64,000 bases of DNA from Litorivivens lipolytica (GTDB taxonomy: Bacteria; Pseudomonadota; Gammaproteobacteria; Pseudomonadales; Spongiibacteraceae): NCBI RefSeq assembly GCF_014191715.1, contig NZ_JACHWY010000003.1:186001-250000 (forward strand), in the 5' to 3' direction. Of this stretch, positions 2,415 to 29,927 are shown piece by piece. The position numbers were made by a program, and so were the translations under genes. Position 1 is the stretch's first letter, and each line of letters starts with the position of its first letter. Under the pieces are notes generated by a model that had not been told where the DNA came from, did no database searches, and saw only the letters and a list, made by a program, of their open reading frames with translations.

Positions 2415-3218
2415 ATGGAGAGCGCACTAAGCCACCGCCGCTTTGGCAGCAGCGACCTGATGGTCAGCCCGCTCGGGCTCGGCACGGTCAAACTGGGGCG
2501 CGATAAAGGCGTCAAATACCCCAAGGACTTCACCATTCCCGACGACAAGGCCGCTGCCGATCTGATCGCACTGGCCCGCGACCTTGGCATTAACTTGATT
2601 GATACCGCACCAGCCTACGGGCGCAGTGAGGAACGCCTGGGCAAATTACTGCAAGGCCAACGACAGGACTGGGTCATTTGCTCCAAGGTCGGCGAAGAAT
2701 TTAATAATGACAGCGGCGACTCACACTTTGATTTCAGTCATCGCCACACCCGCCAGAGCATCGAGCGCAGCCTCGACCGGCTGAAAACCGACTATATCGA
2801 TATTGTGCTGATTCACTCCGATGGTCGCGATGAGCACATTATCCAGCACGAAGGCGCACTGGAAGCCCTGCAGCAATGCAAGCAGGAAGGCCTGATCCGC
2901 GCCATAGGCATGTCCACCAAAACCGTATCGGGCGGATTGCTCGCCGCCGAGCTGAGTGATGCCGTGATGGTGGCCTACAACCCTGCGCACCAGGAAGAAT
3001 CGCCGGTGCTGGACTACTGCGCACGCCACGGCAAGGCCGCCATCCTAAAAAAAGCGCTTGGTAGCGGCCACCTGATCAGTGAGCAGGATCCTGCCCAAGC
3101 AGCGATGCACTTCGCGCTATCGCATCCCGGAGTCACCAGCGCCATTGTCGGCACGATTAATCCCGAACACTTGCGCGAGAATGCGGAGGCTTGTCAGCGG
3201 GCATTGCTCCAAACCTGA
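2415..3218 (+). CDS. Aldo/keto reductase family oxidoreductase
   Basis: A cytoplasmic NADPH-dependent reductase, 267 residues, with a TIM-barrel pattern. The catalytic tetrad of the family can be placed: D63 and Y68 (in LIDTAPAYGRSEERLG), K91 (CSKVGEEF) and H134 (VLIHSDG). The C-terminal IVGTINPEHLREN stretch is the usual cofactor-phosphate region. I chose ATG 2415 over the in-frame GTG at 2409 because the AAGGAG at 2404-2409 is correctly spaced from the ATG and would overlap the GTG. It sits directly behind the FAD oxidoreductase and is presumably in one operon with it. The natural substrate cannot be read from sequence. Confidence 0.88.
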   Translation: MESALSHRRFGSSDLMVSPLGLGTVKLGRDKGVKYPKDFTIPDDKAAADLIALARDLGINLIDTAPAYGRSEERLGKLLQGQRQDWVICSKVGEEFNNDSGDSHFDFSHRHTRQSIERSLDRLKTDYIDIVLIHSDGRDEHIIQHEGALEALQQCKQEGLIRAIGMSTKTVSGGLLAAELSDAVMVAYNPAHQEESPVLDYCARHGKAAILKKALGSGHLISEQDPAQAAMHFALSHPGVTSAIVGTINPEHLRENAEACQRALLQT

Positions 3219-3230
3219 TACTAGCTCCAC

Positions 3231-3632
3231 TCATCGCTTTGGAAGTGAATCATCAATCTCGACGACTCGCCGATCATAGAAAAAGTGCGCATTGGGCTGA
3301 AAGGTCTCGGGAAGCTCGTTCTCATTACTTTTGAGAAACAAAAGTTGTGAAACCAACTTCCAGCCCATCGCATTCGTGTTGTACAGCACCTCACCGCATT
3401 CCAGACAAAAGACGCGCGTCATATTTTTAGCGGGATGCTTGAAGACTTTTATCTTCGACTGCCCCCGGGTTACTTCAACCTGATCAACCTCCCAAGCCAG
3501 CACTGAGCGATACGGCACCTGAAGAAGTTCTCGACAATCTTCACAATGACAGTAGGCATGAACCTTGGGTGAACCCGTCATGGCGACTTCCACTCCACCG
3601 CAATCACAGCGCACCTGATACTGTTCTTTCAT
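3231..3632 (-). CDS. GFA-family (glutathione-dependent formaldehyde-activating-like) zinc protein
   Basis: A 133-residue protein of the GFA/CENP-V fold. Zinc-ligand cysteines are visible as C9-x-C11 (RCDCGG), C28-x-C30-x2-C33 (CHCEDC) and C76-x2-C79 (CLECG), which is the full family pattern. GFA proteins are named for adduct formation between glutathione and formaldehyde, but most members have no proven reaction. I chose ATG 3632, preceded on its strand by GAGAGGAGAGGG, rather than the longer reading back to 3683. It is the last gene of a leftward group with the cupin and MdaB, which suggests a role in electrophile or aldehyde handling (inference). Confidence 0.85.
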   Translation of the reverse strand: MKEQYQVRCDCGGVEVAMTGSPKVHAYCHCEDCRELLQVPYRSVLAWEVDQVEVTRGQSKIKVFKHPAKNMTRVFCLECGEVLYNTNAMGWKLVSQLLFLKSNENELPETFQPNAHFFYDRRVVEIDDSLPKR

Positions 3633-23545: not shown

Positions 23546-24054
23546 CTGCCGGACCTCCCTGCCTCACCACTGACCAAACGACTGTGACGGGGACAGAGTT
23601 CTTTCATTGCCCGGCGATACACATCGCGCTTGAAGGTAACCACCTGATTGACCGGGTACCAGTAACTCACCCAATCCCAGGCATCAAACTCAGGCTTGGC
23701 GGGATCACCCGCAAGATGGACGTCGCTATCGGCGCCGAGAAATTCCAGCAAGAACCATTTCTGTTTCTGGCCGATGCACACCGGCCCATTACCGTTGCGA
23801 CGCACCAGACGCTGCGGCAGGCGATAACGCAACCAGCCTCGCGTGGCTCCTAACAGGCGCACATGCTCGGGCTTGAGTCCGACCTCTTCCTCCAGCTCCC
23901 GAAACAGGGCCTGCTCGGGGCTCTCGCCCTGCTTGATCCCGCCCTGGGGAAACTGCCAGGCATTCTGCCCGGCACGACGCGCCCACAGCACCTGGCCCCG
24001 GCCATTCGCCAGTACCATGCCGACATTGGGTCTGAATCCTTCCGCGTCTATCAC
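23542..24054 (-). CDS. rppH: RNA pyrophosphohydrolase
   Basis: Removes pyrophosphate from 5'-triphosphate RNA ends, opening mRNAs to RNase E decay. 170 residues with a complete Nudix box at 38-60 ([22 protein letters not shown], catalytic glutamates in REL.EE). N-terminus [15 protein letters not shown] and AWQFPQGGI are standard. Coupled by overlap to ptsP. It diverges from the HAD phosphatase gene with about 190 bases between. Confidence 0.97.
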
Positions 24055-24243
24055 TCGAACTCTCTCGTCAATTCTTCCGTAATTTATTGTTAGTGCGACA
24101 TTTTTGCTACTGTCGCAGACATTTCATTGTTCCACAATTCCCGGATTCAGGGAATCGGGACAAATCCCGCTGGCAACCCCGTGAAATGCGCGCCCGCAAT
24201 CGCTATGCTAGCGCCTCCTTGTAAACACAGTGGCAGACACAGC

Positions 24244-24900
24244 GTGGCTTTGGCAATTTTTGATCTCGACAACACCCTGCTCGGTGGCGACAGCGACCAT
24301 GCGTGGGGCGAGTTTCTGGTTGATCGCAAACTGGTGGACGGAAACGCCTTCCGCGAAGCCAACGATCGTTTTTACCAGCAGTACAAGGATGGCAATCTCG
24401 ATATTCAGGCCTATCTCGAATTCGCCCTGCAGCCATTGACGCGATTCAGCCCGGAAGAGCTGACCGAGCTGCACCGCGATTTCATGACCCACTATATTGC
24501 CCCCATGCGCCTGCCGAAGGCAGACGCCTTGATCGCCAAACACAAGGCCGCGGGCGATCACTGCATGATCATGACCGCGACCAACACCTTTATCACGCGA
24601 CCGATAGCCGAAAGCTTGGGAATACCCGACATTATCGGCTCGGAAGCAGAAGTGATCGATGGCCGCTATACCGGAAAACCTGCCGGCACACCGTGTTTTC
24701 AGGAAGGTAAGGTGATTTTGCTGAAGCAGCGAATTCAAGAAAAAGGCTACAAACTTGCCGGTAGCACCTTCTACTCAGACTCACACAACGATCTGCCGCT
24801 ACTGCGACTGGTGGAAAACCCGGTGGTGGTGGACCCGGACGAAAAACTGCTGAAGGAAGCACTGCGCCAGGGTTGGCCAGTGATATCGCTTAGAGATTAA
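24244..24900 (+). CDS. HAD-superfamily (SerB-like, IB) phosphatase
   Basis: A 218-residue HAD hydrolase. Motif I DLDNTL carries nucleophile D7 and acid/base D9; motif II is in MIMTATNTF, and motif III/IV in FYSDSHNDLPLL. A helical cap lies between motif I and II. This subfamily is sometimes named histidinol-phosphatase or phosphoserine phosphatase-like; the true substrate is unknown. I chose GTG 24244 since homologues begin right before the ALAIFDLD strand; a longer reading from an ATG at 24127 crosses promoter-like DNA. Its stop is 3 bases before the convergent GGDEF gene. A 122-bp piece of this gene is duplicated at 26337-26458. Confidence 0.87.
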   Translation: MALAIFDLDNTLLGGDSDHAWGEFLVDRKLVDGNAFREANDRFYQQYKDGNLDIQAYLEFALQPLTRFSPEELTELHRDFMTHYIAPMRLPKADALIAKHKAAGDHCMIMTATNTFITRPIAESLGIPDIIGSEAEVIDGRYTGKPAGTPCFQEGKVILLKQRIQEKGYKLAGSTFYSDSHNDLPLLRLVENPVVVDPDEKLLKEALRQGWPVISLRD

Positions 24901-24903
24901 TTA

Positions 24904-26028
24904 TCAGGCCGCACAGACATCCGCCGACAGCTTGCGACTGAAAAAGCAATTTCTGCCGCTGCGCTTAGCTTCGTACATAAGCTCATCTGCAGCTTTAACC
25001 AGCTGCGGCCCGCTAGCGCAGCCGTGGGTTGCCACGGCCACCCCCATACTGAGCCCAACGTCGATAGACTGCCCCTCGAACTCCACTGGCTGCACAAGGG
25101 CCTTGTGCAGTTTTTCAGCCACCTGCTCGGCCTCGGCTTCCGACTGAATACCAGGCAGGGCAACCACAAACTCATCACCGCCGATGCGGGAGATTGTATC
25201 GCCGGAGCGCAGCAGTTTGCCGGCTCGCTCCACAACCGTTTTCAGGATCAAGTCGCCGGCCGCATGGCCGTAGGTATCGTTGATCGGTTTAAAGCGGTCC
25301 AGATCAATAAACACCACGCCGACACAGGAGCTCTCCCGCTCGCTTTGCTCAATGGCGCCTTGCAGCTTTTCTTCAAGCACATGCGGGCGAACCGCTCCGG
25401 TCAGCGTATCCACGTTGGCAAACTCACGCAGTTTCTGCTGGGCCTTGGCGGTGTCTTCTGCGAGCAGCGCAATCAACTCAGAGTGCTTAAGGAAAGCACT
25501 AAAAATAACCATCGGCAGCCAGGCCGCCACTAGGATATAAGTCGCCCACGTGCTGTAGGTGGACATAAAAGCGTCGAGGTTGATGCCGAGCGTGAGCAGA
25601 CCGCTGGTAAACCCTCCTGCGACCAGAACCAGCAGCACCAGCGCGCAAGCCCCCAGAATCGTCCCCAGCCGCAATGAAATCGCCATGCCGGCGATCAGGG
25701 CGCTGGCCGCCAGCCACCAGGTACCGGCGCCGAGCATCCCCAATGTAAACACACCCAGCAGACCAACTGACCACATCATGGCAATCAAAGCGCCACAGCG
25801 AACTTTAACCGGGAGTTGTTTGCGGAAGAGCCAGAGGCCCACAGCGGTCAAACCAACTAATAGGTGAAAGCCATAGACAGGCATCCACCCGGTCACAGAC
25901 GATCTCATCACGGAGAGCGGCGCACCGACCGCCCCTACAATGGCCATCCCCGCCAGCACTCGGTCCAGCGCCTCTTCGCGCGCCCGAGCTATAAAGGCTG
26001 AAGGATCTAGAAACTCATCGTCTGGCAC
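24904..26028 (-). CDS. Membrane-bound diguanylate cyclase (GGDEF), copy 1
   Basis: Makes the second messenger cyclic di-GMP from two GTP. 374 residues: five or six hydrophobic helices in the first 180 residues form a membrane sensor domain, then a short linker and a GGDEF domain (about 205-365). The active-site motif is intact (IGGDEFVV) and the product-inhibition RxxD site (RSGD) sits five residues before it, so it should be an active, feedback-inhibited cyclase. About 57% identical by hand alignment to the neighbouring gene at 26491-27612. A CRP/Vfr-like palindrome lies just upstream. Confidence 0.93.
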   Translation of the reverse strand: MPDDEFLDPSAFIARAREEALDRVLAGMAIVGAVGAPLSVMRSSVTGWMPVYGFHLLVGLTAVGLWLFRKQLPVKVRCGALIAMMWSVGLLGVFTLGMLGAGTWWLAASALIAGMAISLRLGTILGACALVLLVLVAGGFTSGLLTLGINLDAFMSTYSTWATYILVAAWLPMVIFSAFLKHSELIALLAEDTAKAQQKLREFANVDTLTGAVRPHVLEEKLQGAIEQSERESSCVGVVFIDLDRFKPINDTYGHAAGDLILKTVVERAGKLLRSGDTISRIGGDEFVVALPGIQSEAEAEQVAEKLHKALVQPVEFEGQSIDVGLSMGVAVATHGCASGPQLVKAADELMYEAKRSGRNCFFSRKLSADVCAA

Positions 26029-26048
26029 AGCTCAATCCCCACATTGAA

Positions 26049-26064
26049 CGTGAACTAGATCACG
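26049..26064. promoter_or_regulatory. CRP/Vfr-like palindrome upstream of GGDEF copy 1
   Basis: CGTGA-ACTAGA-TCACG: perfect five-base half-sites with a six-base spacer, matching the TGTGA-N6-TCACA plan except for the outermost base pair. It starts 21 bases before the GGDEF copy 1 start codon. No such site precedes copy 2. Position so close to the start would fit repression or a very short leader; inference only. Confidence 0.4.
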
Positions 26065-26268
26065 TTTTAGCGCAAGACACACAAAAATTACTTACGTATT
26101 TTTACGCATGTTGGGGAAAAGCAGCGAGCCATACGGCACCGCGCCAAGCGCAAGACAACTAAAATAATGCTTATTTTTCTAATGGTTACAAACATCCCGC
26201 GGAAATTTAATCGCCCCTCACGAAATACGGGTAATTACGCGAGCCTCTCGCGGGCCCAACCCGCGCAC

Positions 26269-26294
26269 AAAAAAGCCGGCTCGCAGCCGGCTTT
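26269..26294 (-). terminator. Duplicated gcvH-type rho-independent terminator
   Basis: Stem AAAGCCGGCT (26272-26281), loop CGC, AGCCGGCTTT (26285-26294), with an A-run on the plus strand (26269-26274) that gives a U-run in leftward RNA. It matches the gcvH terminator at 27779-27805 in stem sequence, orientation and distance to the gcvH-like stop codon. It now lies downstream of GGDEF copy 2 and could end that transcript. Confidence 0.85.
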
Positions 26295-26316
26295 CTGAAA
26301 ACCTTCACACCTGTAC

Positions 26317-26338
26317 TCAGCCTTCGTACTCGGCGTCG
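26317..26338 (-). pseudogene. Remnant of gcvH 3' end
   Basis: Reading leftward this is the last seven codons or so of gcvH with its stop: DAEYEG-stop against DAECED-stop in the intact gene at 27826-28212. It has two mismatches over the first 22 bases and is followed by a copy of the gcvH terminator at matching distance. It is joined directly to the HAD-gene fragment at about 26337-26339, the breakpoint of a tandem duplication. Confidence 0.85.
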
Positions 26339-26458
26339 ATAGCCGAAAGCTTGGGAATACCGGACATTATCAGCTCGGAAGCAGAAGTGATCGATGGCCG
26401 CTATACCGGGAAACCTGTGGGCACACCTTTTTTTCAGGAAGATAAGGTGATATTGCTG
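26337..26458 (+). pseudogene. Fragment of the HAD phosphatase gene
   Basis: 122 bases that match 24602-24723 of the intact HAD gene without gaps, with 9 mismatches (about 93% identity). The reading frame is still open (IAESLGIPDII then SEAEVIDGRYTGKP) and runs to a TGA at 26465-26467, but has no start and lacks motifs I, II and IV of the enzyme, so it is a dead piece. Similarity stops abruptly after TTGCTG, where about 170 bases corresponding to the gene's end have been lost before GGDEF copy 2. Confidence 0.95.
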
Positions 26459-26490
26459 CGGGACTGAGCCCCCATCCTTGTAGATTCCTG

Positions 26491-27612
26491 TTATGCGGCG
26501 AATGTCCTATCCAGTTTCTGGCAAACCAGATTATTTGTGCCGCTGCGTTTAGCCTTATACATCAGCTCGTCGGCGATTTTCATCAAACCTGCACAGTCAA
26601 CTTTTTCCTTCGCACCGATGACAACGCCCATACTGAGACGGATTTCAAGCTCGTGACCATCGAAAGTAAATGGCCGAGTAATAGCCTTGCGCAGCTTGCG
26701 CGCCACAAGCTCCGCTTCTGAATCCAAGCTCACCCCAGGTATCACCACCACAAACTCGTCACCTCCCGCACGAGCGATCACATCGCCAGAGCGCAACACC
26801 GTGCGAGATCGTTCAACAACAGCCTTGAGGACGGCATCCCCCGCTGCATGACCGTAGGTATCGTTGATCGGTTTAAACTGATCCAAATCAATAAAGATCA
26901 CCCCGATCGATTTTTTATTCTCATCACGCGTGGATAAGGCGGCGCGCAATTGCTGTTCCAGCACATGGGGGCGGACGGCGCCGGTCAGCATATCGGTATT
27001 GGCAACCTCCTGCAGCGCAAGCTGGGCGCGAGCAGTCTCTTCTGCCAGTTGAGTTACGATATCGGCGTGCTTCACAAAGGCGCTAAAAATCACCATGGGT
27101 AGCCAAGCTGCCACCAATATATAAGTTGCCCACGTAGAGTAGGCGGCCATGTATGTGTCGAGCTCCAGAGAAACCGTTAGAAGCCCCTGGGAGAACGCCG
27201 CCGCCACACACAACAGGAATACAATCGCCGCGCAGCCCAAACCCATCCCCACGCGCAAGGACATGCTCATTCCGCCCACCAGCGCGCTCGACGCCAGCCA
27301 CCACGTGCCAGCGCCCATCATGCCAAGAGAGACCACACCCAAGGTGCCGATCAGCCACATCAAGGCGATCACCATCCAAAACCGAGCTTTTTGTGAAAAC
27401 CGCGCGCGAAACAGCCACAGCATCACCACGGCAAAGCCCATCAAAAGGTGGTAGCTGTACATCGCTTGCCAACCCGTAACGGTAGCGCGCATAGCTGACA
27501 ATGGCGCACCAAACAAACCAACAACAGCCAGACACGCCAATACCTTATCCAGCGATTCCGCTCTCGCAGTCGCTATCATCGCTTTTGGATCGAGAATTCT
27601 CTCTTGCTGCAT
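26491..27612 (-). CDS. Membrane-bound diguanylate cyclase (GGDEF), copy 2
   Basis: Paralogue of the gene at 24904-26028: 373 residues, the same multi-helix N-terminal domain and a C-terminal GGDEF domain with intact AGGDEFVV and an upstream RSGD inhibition site. The most conserved stretch between the two copies is the last membrane helix (STWATYILVAAWLPMVIFSA), suggesting a shared signalling joint, while loops differ. Its upstream region has no CRP-like site, so the two may be regulated differently. It arose through the tandem duplication whose scars flank it. Likely active. Confidence 0.93.
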   Translation of the reverse strand: MQQERILDPKAMIATARAESLDKVLACLAVVGLFGAPLSAMRATVTGWQAMYSYHLLMGFAVVMLWLFRARFSQKARFWMVIALMWLIGTLGVVSLGMMGAGTWWLASSALVGGMSMSLRVGMGLGCAAIVFLLCVAAAFSQGLLTVSLELDTYMAAYSTWATYILVAAWLPMVIFSAFVKHADIVTQLAEETARAQLALQEVANTDMLTGAVRPHVLEQQLRAALSTRDENKKSIGVIFIDLDQFKPINDTYGHAAGDAVLKAVVERSRTVLRSGDVIARAGGDEFVVVIPGVSLDSEAELVARKLRKAITRPFTFDGHELEIRLSMGVVIGAKEKVDCAGLMKIADELMYKAKRSGTNNLVCQKLDRTFAA

Positions 27613-27778
27613 AACAAGCCTCAGGCGGCTCTATTTAAGACTTGTTTATAGCCGAATTACGTGCAGAAGGGACTAAGTACATCCCGCAGGCATTTTTAGC
27701 TATCTGAGGTAATTCAAAATGACTGCAACAGAATGAAATTATTATCTTTTTATAATCAAATAGTTATAAGACAGACAC

Positions 27779-27805
27779 AAAAAAAAGCCGGCTCGTGGCC
27801 GGCTT
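27779..27805 (-). terminator. Rho-independent terminator of gcvH
   Basis: On the leftward strand: stem AAGCCGGC / GCCGGCTT (27785-27792 and 27798-27805, loop TCGTG) followed by a run of eight U (plus-strand A 27779-27786). It begins 20 bases after the gcvH stop. A second copy is at 26269-26294. Confidence 0.92.
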
Positions 27806-27825
27806 CTCTCAAACACGAAGAACGA

Positions 27826-28212
27826 TCAGTCTTCGCACTCGGCGTCGTAGGCTTCCGCGTCCAGCAGGTTTTCCAGCTCACCCGGTTCACTGGGCTGCAG
27901 CTTGAAGAACCAGCCGTCGTCGTAAGGCGATTCGTTGATGACTTCCGGCGACTCTTCCAGCGACTCGTTAATGGCAATGACTTCGCCACTCACCGGTGAG
28001 TAGATGTCAGAAGCGGCCTTCACCGATTCCACTACGCCAATTTCTTCGCCGGCGGAATAGGTGTTGCCGATTTCCGGCAGTTCCACAAAAACCACGTCAC
28101 CCAATGCGTCCTGCGCATGGTCGGTTATACCTACCGTGATGGTTCCGTCGGCTTCCAGACGCGCCCATTCGTGGCTGCTGGCGTATTTCAGTTCGCTGGG
28201 CGAATTGCTCAT
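27826..28212 (-). CDS. gcvH: Glycine cleavage system H protein
   Basis: Lipoyl carrier of the glycine cleavage complex, shuttling the aminomethyl group between GcvP, GcvT and Lpd. 128 residues (E. coli 129). The lipoylated lysine is K65 in [38 protein letters not shown] is the usual front part. I chose ATG 28212 because the family starts at this point; longer reading frames would run into the permease gene. No gcvT or gcvP is near, and the gene has its own terminator, so it may be transcribed alone or with the iron transporter genes upstream. Confidence 0.96.
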
Positions 28213-28289
28213 GAGATTTTCCCGCTGCTGGCAAAAGGCGCATTCTAACGCCGCTTGTTTCAAATAAAAACAATCTAAGCTGATAGCGG

Positions 28290-29927
28290 CTATTTCAGGG
28301 TGCGCTTGATGCTGATGATCACGGGAACCAGCCCCAGCAGCACAATGGTCAGCGCCGGCAGCGCTGCCCGCTGCCATTCCCCTTCCGAGGTCATTTCATA
28401 AATTCGAACCGCCAGCGTGTCCCAACCGTAAGGGCGCAACAGCAAGGTCGCCGGCATTTCCTTGATGACATCGACAAAGACCAGAATGGCGGCGGTCAGT
28501 AGCCCCGGCCTCAACATCGGCAAATAAATCCGCCACAGCACTTCCAACGGCCGTGCACCGAGGGTGCGCGCCGCATCGGGAATGGACGGGCGAATACGCA
28601 GCAGGCTGGCATCGATCGGCCCGCTCGCCACCGCCAGAAATCGAATCCAGTAAGCCGCGAGCAAAGCCAGCACGGTGCCCACCAGCACCGAGCGCGCCTC
28701 CATGCCCAGCCACGCCTGCAAGGGAAACAACAACTGCTGCTCAATGCGGGAAAAGGAAATCACCACGCCCACCGCCAACACCGACCCCGGCAGGGCGTAA
28801 CCCAATTGCGCAAGGTCAAAAAAAGCCCGCTGCCGGGGGCCCGCCCGCCAGCGACTGAAGGCCAACAGGGTGGCAATGGCGACGGTCAGCACCGAGGCCT
28901 GCAGGGCCAGTGAAAGGGAATGCCACAGCAAGGCGCCAAAGCGTGCATCCAATTGCGCCGCGCCGACCTCAAAGGCCCAGATCAGCATCTGCAACACCGG
29001 CAGGAAGAAGGCCACACTCAACACCAGTAAACAGTAAGCGGTAACCGCCCAGGCCCGAAGCCCGGTCAGAGGGTGGCGAAAGTGATGGTGCAACTGCGAG
29101 CCCTGCACATAGCGGCGGCGACCGCGCAGGCGCTTTTCGGCAAACAGGGTCAGCGCAACAAATAACAGCAACAGGGAGGCCAATTGGGCCGCTGCCTGCA
29201 GGCTGAAAAAGCCAAACCAGGCTTTGTAAATGGCGGTGGTAAAGGTGTCATAGTTGAACACCGCGACCGTACCGAAATCGGCGAGTGTTTCCATCAGTGC
29301 CAGTGAGACGCCGGCGATTATGGCCGGTCGGGCCATCGGCAGAGCGACCCGAAAAAAGGCGCCCCAGGCACCGCTGCCCAGGCTGCGTGCAGCCTCAATG
29401 GTGTCACTGCTCTGGGAGAGAAAGGCACTGCGCGCCAGCATGTACACGTAGGGGTAGAGCACCAGTGACAACACCAATACCACCACCGCCTCATGGCGCA
29501 CGTCGATCAGTGGCAGGCCCAACTCCCGCGACAGAAAGCTCTGCAGCGGGCCACTGAAATCAAACAGCCCCAGCACCACAAACGCGAGGACGTACGCGGG
29601 CACCGCCATCGGCAACATCAGCAGCCATTCAAACTTGGCGCGCCCGGGAAAATCGCACATCACCACCAGCCACGCCAGACTGATACCGAGCACCGACACA
29701 CACAGGCCGACACCCATCAGCAACACCAGCGTGTTGCGCAGCAGGGAGGAGAGCTGGGTGGCGATCAGGTGCTGCCAGATTTCGGTTTGATCCGATCCCC
29801 AGCTGAAAATCACCACCAGAATAGGCGCCAATACCGCCAGCACCGCAACCGAGGCAGCGATGCGCGATAGGGGTCGCAGGCTTTTCTGACCTGCGCTGAT
29901 CAGGCGGGCCGCCGGCGCCTCATTCAC
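28290..29927 (-). CDS. fbpB: Iron(III) ABC transporter permease, fused two-half type
   Basis: A 545-residue inner-membrane protein with roughly twelve hydrophobic helices, i.e. two fused permease halves as in FbpB/SfuB. Each half has the ATPase-contact EAA loop: [26 protein letters not shown] in the first and [26 protein letters not shown] in the second. It follows the binding-protein gene by 15 bases and starts with GTG without a clear ribosome site, suggesting coupling. No ATPase (FbpC) gene follows; gcvH does. The ATPase must be encoded elsewhere. Confidence 0.92.

What the first reader, a model, noticed from the sequence alone, without database searches (positions are those of the whole stretch)
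24602..27848. Scar of a tandem segmental duplication: HAD-GGDEF-gcvH unit copied, then eroded
The order intact HAD phosphatase (+), GGDEF copy 1 (-), gcvH-type terminator, gcvH tail, HAD fragment (+), GGDEF copy 2 (-), gcvH terminator, intact gcvH (-) is explained by one tandem duplication. The breakpoints are inside HAD (24602) and seven codons before the gcvH stop (27848). The novel joint at 26337-26339 fuses the gcvH tail directly to the HAD fragment, with only two shared bases (CG). The fragments line up in place, strand and distance to the terminator. This shows how a second diguanylate cyclase was gained in the lineage.
Basis: seen in the sequence. Interest (0 to 1): 0.62.

Follow-up and report, generated by a model that had tools for sequence, protein, structure and literature searches.

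The report
Scar joining two old cyclase genes
Between two housekeeping genes of a bacterium, the cut-off ends of those same two genes are welded together between two related signalling-enzyme genes; the weld looks much younger than the split between the two enzymes, so it probably joined two already different versions of the locus rather than copying one.

Summary
The scar is real. HAD codons 119-159 recur at 26337-26458 (113/122), fused through a 2-bp CG overlap to the last 22 nt of gcvH (20/22), with the gcvH hairpin beside it (25/28). The fragment probably continues to a stop at 26467 after a 168-bp internal deletion.

The one-step story (copied once, then eroded) fails on ages. Fragment and HAD agree at 35/40 third positions; the two MASE11-GGDEF genes at 151/374 (Fisher 6e-9) and at 49/120 fourfold sites, fewer than this genome and its closest held relative in five neighbouring genes (483/896). 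GGDEF upstream regions and terminator-gcvH spacers align no better than shuffled. No single-copy HAD-GGDEF-gcvH relative was found: 18 of 21 family genomes have HAD next to gcvH, the other two of the genus carry DUF3604 there, and 0 of 47 named loci with both genes show this GGDEF. The genus is thinly sampled (3 genomes).

Best account (0.45): one illegitimate joint between two homologous, already diverged HAD-GGDEF-gcvH alleles, probably through DNA uptake, then decay. Main rival: old duplication plus gene conversion. The kind of event is known; interest is modest.

The parts
24244..24900 (+). intact HAD-type phosphatase gene, left border of the slot and source of the fragment
   Evidence: ORF (start GTG 24244 chosen by eye), Pfam HAD 123.4 bits
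24602..24723 (+). part of HAD that is repeated (codons 119-159)
24904..26028 (-). MASE11-GGDEF gene 1 (G1), 374 aa
26029..26265 (-). upstream region of G1, not alignable with that of G2
   Evidence: 43 of 300 shuffles reach the score
26266..26293 (-). hairpin like the one behind gcvH (25/28), now behind G2 in reading direction
26317..26338 (-). remnant of the last 22 nt of gcvH, two non-synonymous changes
26337..26338 (.). joint, 2 bp (CG) shared by the gcvH and HAD parts
26337..26467 (+). HAD remnant: 122 bp at 113/122 plus probable end RD* (26459-26467) after a 168-bp internal deletion
26491..27612 (-). MASE11-GGDEF gene 2 (G2), 373 aa, 57% identical to G1
27778..27805 (-). hairpin behind intact gcvH
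   Evidence: not listed by the scan
27826..28212 (-). intact gcvH, right border of the slot
   Evidence: ORF (start ATG 28212 chosen), Pfam GCV_H 158.7 bits

Best explanation
A fairly recent illegitimate joint placed two homologous but already diverged versions of one slot in tandem: HAD-G1-hairpin-gcvH and HAD-G2-hairpin-gcvH. The gcvH end of the first was joined, with a 2-bp overlap, to HAD codon 119 of the second, leaving HAD-G1-gcvH remnant | HAD remnant-G2-gcvH. The likely route is uptake of DNA from a related strain or species, one side paired by homology and the other joined illegitimately. The core flanks (HAD codons 119-159, gcvH end) were still similar between the partners, while the slot interiors (cyclase, upstream region, spacer) had diverged long before. 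Afterwards the HAD remnant lost 168 bp and both remnants took non-synonymous changes; both cyclase frames stay open, and the copied hairpin now lies behind G2. Shown: anatomy, joint, age contrast. Inferred: existence of the second allele, the transfer, the order of events, the function of the hairpin.
For: Age contrast: third positions 35/40 (fragment-HAD) against 151/374 (G1-G2), Fisher 6e-9; fourfold 13/16 against 49/120, p 0.003. G1-G2 fourfold identity is below that of own-G002 orthologues in five neighbouring genes, 483/896 (p 0.008), and like own-G001 in three, 172/392 (p 0.60). GGDEF upstream regions do not align and the terminator-gcvH spacers align no better than shuffled (44% of 5,000 shuffles). 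HAD remnant end CTG CGG GAC TGA against CTT AGA GAT TAA: 5 of 12 bases differ, all synonymous, as for an end that was still coding while it diverged. The gcvH remnant keeps 20/22, hard for a sequence neutral as long as G1-G2 (P 0.0016 at 40%, 6e-5 at 50% divergence). Four of nine HAD-fragment changes are non-synonymous where both other genus members agree with intact HAD, so it decayed after the joint. ComEC and DprA domains are present.
Against: No genome with a single-copy HAD-GGDEF-gcvH slot, donor or ancestor, was found, and both other genus members carry DUF3604 there, so two diverged GGDEF alleles of this slot must be assumed. The end-of-HAD argument rests on 9-12 nt of uncertain homology. 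The spacer argument rests on gaps: among aligned spacer bases 3 of 16 mismatch, not significant against 7.4% (P 0.11). Divergence along HAD shows no break that would mark donor DNA: own-G002 third positions 73/119, 20/40, 26/59, against 73/119, 16/40, 27/59 for G002-G001. HFIR products usually show 3-10 bp at the joint and a deletion (PMC3240628, passages); here 2 bp and a net gain, though 3 of 4 E. coli products in that paper had no homology at the joint. ComEC and DprA domains ring in 10 and 11 of 14 control genomes, so they say little.
Confidence: 0.45

Rival explanations
1. Old in-place tandem duplication of HAD-end/GGDEF/gcvH-end, but long ago; G1 and G2 diverged in place, and intact HAD recently overwrote 122 bp of its own remnant by gene conversion.
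For: Explains old cyclases, unalignable upstream regions and spacer, and a young 122-bp stretch next to an older HAD end. G1 and G2 are each other's closest kin found (57% against 46-48% to G008).
Against: The gcvH remnant (20/22) would have to stay intact over the same long time (P 6e-5 to 0.0016); the HAD end differs only silently; both other genus members have DUF3604 in the slot, with G001-G002 fourfold identity (130/255) like their neighbouring genes (43/87, 31/50, 115/245). No conversion tract between G1 and G2.
Confidence: 0.2
2. An older, larger duplication held complete HAD and gcvH copies; a later deletion from the end of the first gcvH to codon 119 of the second HAD made the joint. 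The joint is then a deletion joint.
For: Remnant ends would have been under selection until the deletion: fits silent HAD-end changes and the conserved gcvH end.
Against: Needs a duplication, conversion of HAD (122 bp young) and a deletion; no relative with doubled HAD or gcvH was seen (one match each in all 21 family genomes at 1e-40 and 1e-20).
Confidence: 0.12
3. An old tandem pair HAD-G1-G2-gcvH was duplicated recently as a whole; then G2 of the first unit and G1 of the second were lost.
For: Explains old cyclases and a young HAD fragment.
Against: Needs two precise deletions; predicts young, alignable spacer and HAD end, contrary.
Confidence: 0.06
4. One reading: one recent tandem duplication, then erosion and fast divergence of the two cyclases.
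For: Order, strands and joint.
Against: Age contrast and unalignable slot interiors.
Confidence: 0.05

Closest known systems
Homology-facilitated illegitimate recombination (HFIR) as described for S. pneumoniae, Acinetobacter, P. stutzeri and E. coli (PMC3240628, passages)
   Same: One side anchored by homology, the other joined with little or no homology; DNA added at a locus.
   Different: 2 bp at the joint and a net gain with HAD sequence doubled; the paper describes mostly 3-10 bp and a deletion of similar size. No donor identified here.
Displaced 3' ends and immunity-gene arrays of V. cholerae T6SS clusters, and orphan tails of Rhs loci (PMC5361080, passages)
   Same: A module inserts at a conserved anchor and the older module is kept behind it, in one case with a displaced 3' gene end; HFIR is proposed there too.
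   Different: Here the anchor is a housekeeping phosphatase gene, the modules are cyclases, and only one displacement is seen.
Tandem duplications with short junctions, including merodiploids made by transformation (PMC3784515, abstract)
   Same: Direct order of units and a novel joint; transformation as a possible trigger.
   Different: The two units differ too much inside to be copies from one recent event.

Membership tests
Single recent tandem segmental duplication | novel joint linking the end of one unit to the start of the next, same orientation | tested here: met
Single recent tandem segmental duplication | all parts of the two units equally old, allowing for selection | tested here: not met
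   third positions 35/40 against 151/374; upstream regions and spacers unalignable
Single recent tandem segmental duplication | single-copy arrangement in a relative | tested here: inconclusive
   not found: 0 of 21 family genomes and 0 of 47 named loci with both genes; but only 3 genomes of the genus are held
HFIR product | illegitimate joint with little or no homology | tested here: met
   CG shared
HFIR product | opposite border inside homologous sequence, donor and recipient alleles distinguishable | tested here: inconclusive
   HAD end and spacer look diverged while 122 bp are not; no break along HAD against G002; no donor
HFIR product | deletion of recipient DNA at the illegitimate side (usual, not obligatory) | tested here: not met
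   HAD and gcvH are both intact beside the scar
MASE11-GGDEF protein (G1, G2) | MASE11 and GGDEF domains above the Pfam cut-off | tested here: met
   MASE11 36.2 and 31.2 bits (cut-off 27.3), GGDEF 141.5 and 139.2 (cut-off 23.8)
MASE11-GGDEF protein (G1, G2) | diguanylate cyclase activity | not testable with these tools
   GGDEF and RxxD motifs read by eye; their meaning is recalled

The most novel reading that the evidence does not exclude
The HAD-gcvH gap is a replaceable slot in this genus (DUF3604 in two members, MASE11-GGDEF in this one), and two diverged cyclase alleles of the slot were stacked by one illegitimate joint, so that a strain gained a second, ready-made different cyclase in one step instead of by duplication and divergence.
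Probability: 0.4. Interest if true: 0.4.

Novelty: new member of a known kind. Interest (0 to 1): 0.27.

Why it matters
Tandem paralogues are usually read as duplicates that diverged in place. Here a datable scar between the two genes suggests that the pair was put together from two already different genes. If true, it is a small clean case of paralogue gain by allele stacking, and a warning that a duplication scar beside two paralogues need not date their divergence.

Tried and rejected
One recent tandem duplication with plain divergence: rejected on ages. Gene conversion between G1 and G2: no tract (best 15-codon window has 12 third-position matches, reached in 425 of 2,000 shuffles; a 26-nt identical run covers FKPINDTYG). 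A break in divergence along HAD that would mark donor DNA: none. Foreign composition of G1 or G2: nothing clear (GC 0.588 and 0.545, window 0.577). Mobile origin: no plasmid match for the MASE11 part of G2 at 1e-5; viral contigs gave 20 relatives at 29-42%, mostly over the GGDEF part. DUF3604 moved elsewhere in this genome: best match 45%, against 77% between the slot genes of G001 and G002, so rather paralogues. Promoter-like sites in 24000-28400: 0, shuffles 2.6. Literature, by listing only: 'MASE11' 0 papers; 'diguanylate cyclase' + 'tandem duplication' + 'GGDEF' 7 papers, none read, none by title about a GGDEF duplication scar; a search on duplication joints listed 8 of 27 papers, one of which (PMC11111574) was looked at in passages and adds nothing specific. 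I make no claim that this kind of event is absent from print.
Full report
OBSERVATION. The repeat finder gives HAD 24602-24723 again at 26337-26458 (93%), the gcvH 3' end 27826-27847 again at 26317-26338 (91%) and the gcvH hairpin 27778-27805 again at 26266-26293 (89%). The HAD and gcvH similarities overlap by CG only, 26337-26338. A search of the whole genome with HAD 24602-24900 finds two places, the gene and the copy. Pfam names HAD, GCV_H and two MASE11-GGDEF proteins. A consensus scan lists the remnant hairpin but not the intact one, and no more hits than shuffles (5 against 5.6), so 'terminator' rests on reading the hairpin and T-run.

AN EXTENSION. After 26458 the fragment reads CGG GAC TGA, so its frame ends VILLRD*, where HAD ends VISLRD*. 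HAD carries GTGATTTTGCTG at 24712 and GTGATATCGCTT at 24880; slippage between them would remove 168 bp in frame. RD* is encoded by 12 of 100,000 random 9-mers of the window, but by raw base match 3,608 of 100,000 do as well, and local alignment of the two regions picked another stretch. I take the extension as likely, not proven.

AGES. Fragment and HAD agree at 35/40 third positions and 13/16 fourfold sites; G1 and G2 at 151/374 and 49/120 (Fisher 6e-9 and 0.003). With an assumed saturation level of 0.72, corrected fourfold distances are 0.22 (bootstrap 0 to 0.53) and 1.24 (0.85 to 2.0); fragment-HAD by third positions 0.14 (0.03 to 0.27). For scale, this genome against G002 gives 483/896 over HAD, gcvH, an ABC permease and two further neighbours (I call them ptsP and nudH from memory), and against G001 172/392 over three of these. 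An unselected fragment should change at least as fast as third positions of a live gene, so the copy is several times younger than the G1-G2 split. Upstream regions of G1 and G2 align no better than shuffled (43 of 300 reach the score), nor do the 20- and 23-nt spacers between hairpin and gcvH stop (44% of 5,000 shuffles). The spacer result comes from gaps; its mismatches alone (3 of 16) are not excessive (P 0.11).

KIND OF DIFFERENCES. Of nine differences in the 122 bp, four (24637, 24683, 24695, 24707) are non-synonymous changes in the fragment where both other genus members agree with intact HAD; one (24684) looks like a change in the intact gene. That is decay after the joint. The gcvH remnant has two differences, both non-synonymous. 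The end of the HAD remnant differs at 5 of 12 bases, all synonymous, more than 9/122 elsewhere (Fisher 0.003; RD* alone 4/9, 0.006): as if it was still coding while it diverged. The sample is small.

RELATIVES. In 18 of 21 family genomes HAD and gcvH are direct convergent neighbours, matches ending 11-196 bp apart. The two other genomes of the genus, G001 and G002 (89% and 70% complete), carry a DUF3604 gene between them and no G1/G2-like protein at 1e-60. DUF3604 of G001 and G002 is as diverged (130/255 fourfold) as their HAD, gcvH and permease (43/87, 31/50, 115/245), which fits inheritance in the slot. A named-genome scan with the HAD alignment kept the best 80 of at least 472 relatives; 47 of the 80 loci hold a gcvH match, 39 of them with 400 bp or more between. 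None of the 47 has a G1/G2 match over 100 bits; the one locus that does (L087, 33% identity) shows no gcvH. These loci overlap the family set (L067 is the G001 contig). In 31 of 39 slots the longest ORF falls in one cluster, by my recollection an RlmI-type methyltransferase. So no single-copy ancestor was found; with three genomes in the genus that is weak evidence.

ORIGIN OF THE CYCLASES. Besides this genome, only G008 of 390 order genomes has a match to G2 at 1e-70; it is 49% identical and lies 68 kb from its HAD-gcvH pair. With the MASE11 part: 3 of 390 order genomes at 1e-15 (this one, G008, a weak G086), 1 of 369 class genomes (this one) and 2 of 388 phylum genomes at 1e-20 (this one, a weaker G858) (samples of larger groups, at most 8 candidates scored per genome, 5). 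G1 and G2 are each other's closest kin (57% against 46-48% to G008).

EXPLANATION. A young joint, between flanks that are similar, enclosing interiors that are old, results if the two halves came from two versions of the same locus: one supplied HAD-G1-hairpin-gcvH end, the other HAD from codon 119-G2-hairpin-gcvH. Uptake with one homologous and one illegitimate side would do this; HFIR is described in PMC3240628 and invoked for module stacking with displaced ends in PMC5361080 (passages). Transformation can also create tandem duplications (PMC3784515, abstract). ComEC and DprA domains are present, as in most control genomes. Main rival: old duplication with recent conversion of the 122 bp. 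It is less good because the gcvH remnant is too well kept and the HAD end differs only silently, but it is not excluded. DUF3604 in both other genus members makes an old GGDEF duplication in this slot harder to place; it also means that the two GGDEF alleles assumed here are unobserved.

VERDICT. Observation confirmed. Interpretation partly supported: a tandem-type joint, yes; birth of the second cyclase by that event, probably not. The mechanism class is known and interest is modest.

Noticed in passing
L058:3407-5428; L059:4199-6226: The other two genomes held for the genus carry a DUF3604 gene between HAD and gcvH; the best match in this genome is 45%, so slot content differs within the genus.
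   Followed up: partly
L058 about 3140-3300: A long inverted repeat between gcvH and the DUF3604 gene in G002, like a small palindromic repeat element; seen by eye.
   Followed up: no
L072-L146, slot between HAD and gcvH: In 31 of 39 slots of 400 bp or more among named loci the longest ORF falls in one cluster, about 398 aa in many; it looks like an RlmI-type methyltransferase (recalled, not tested). 18 of 21 family genomes have no gene there.
   Followed up: partly
G000:C1:603686-604171 (L151): A third, distant MASE11-like region in the same genome (E 1.9e-16).
   Followed up: no
window about 25268-25293 and 26852-26877: G1 and G2 share 26 identical bases over FKPINDTYG although third positions are otherwise about 40% alike; probably conserved residues with like codons.
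   Followed up: partly
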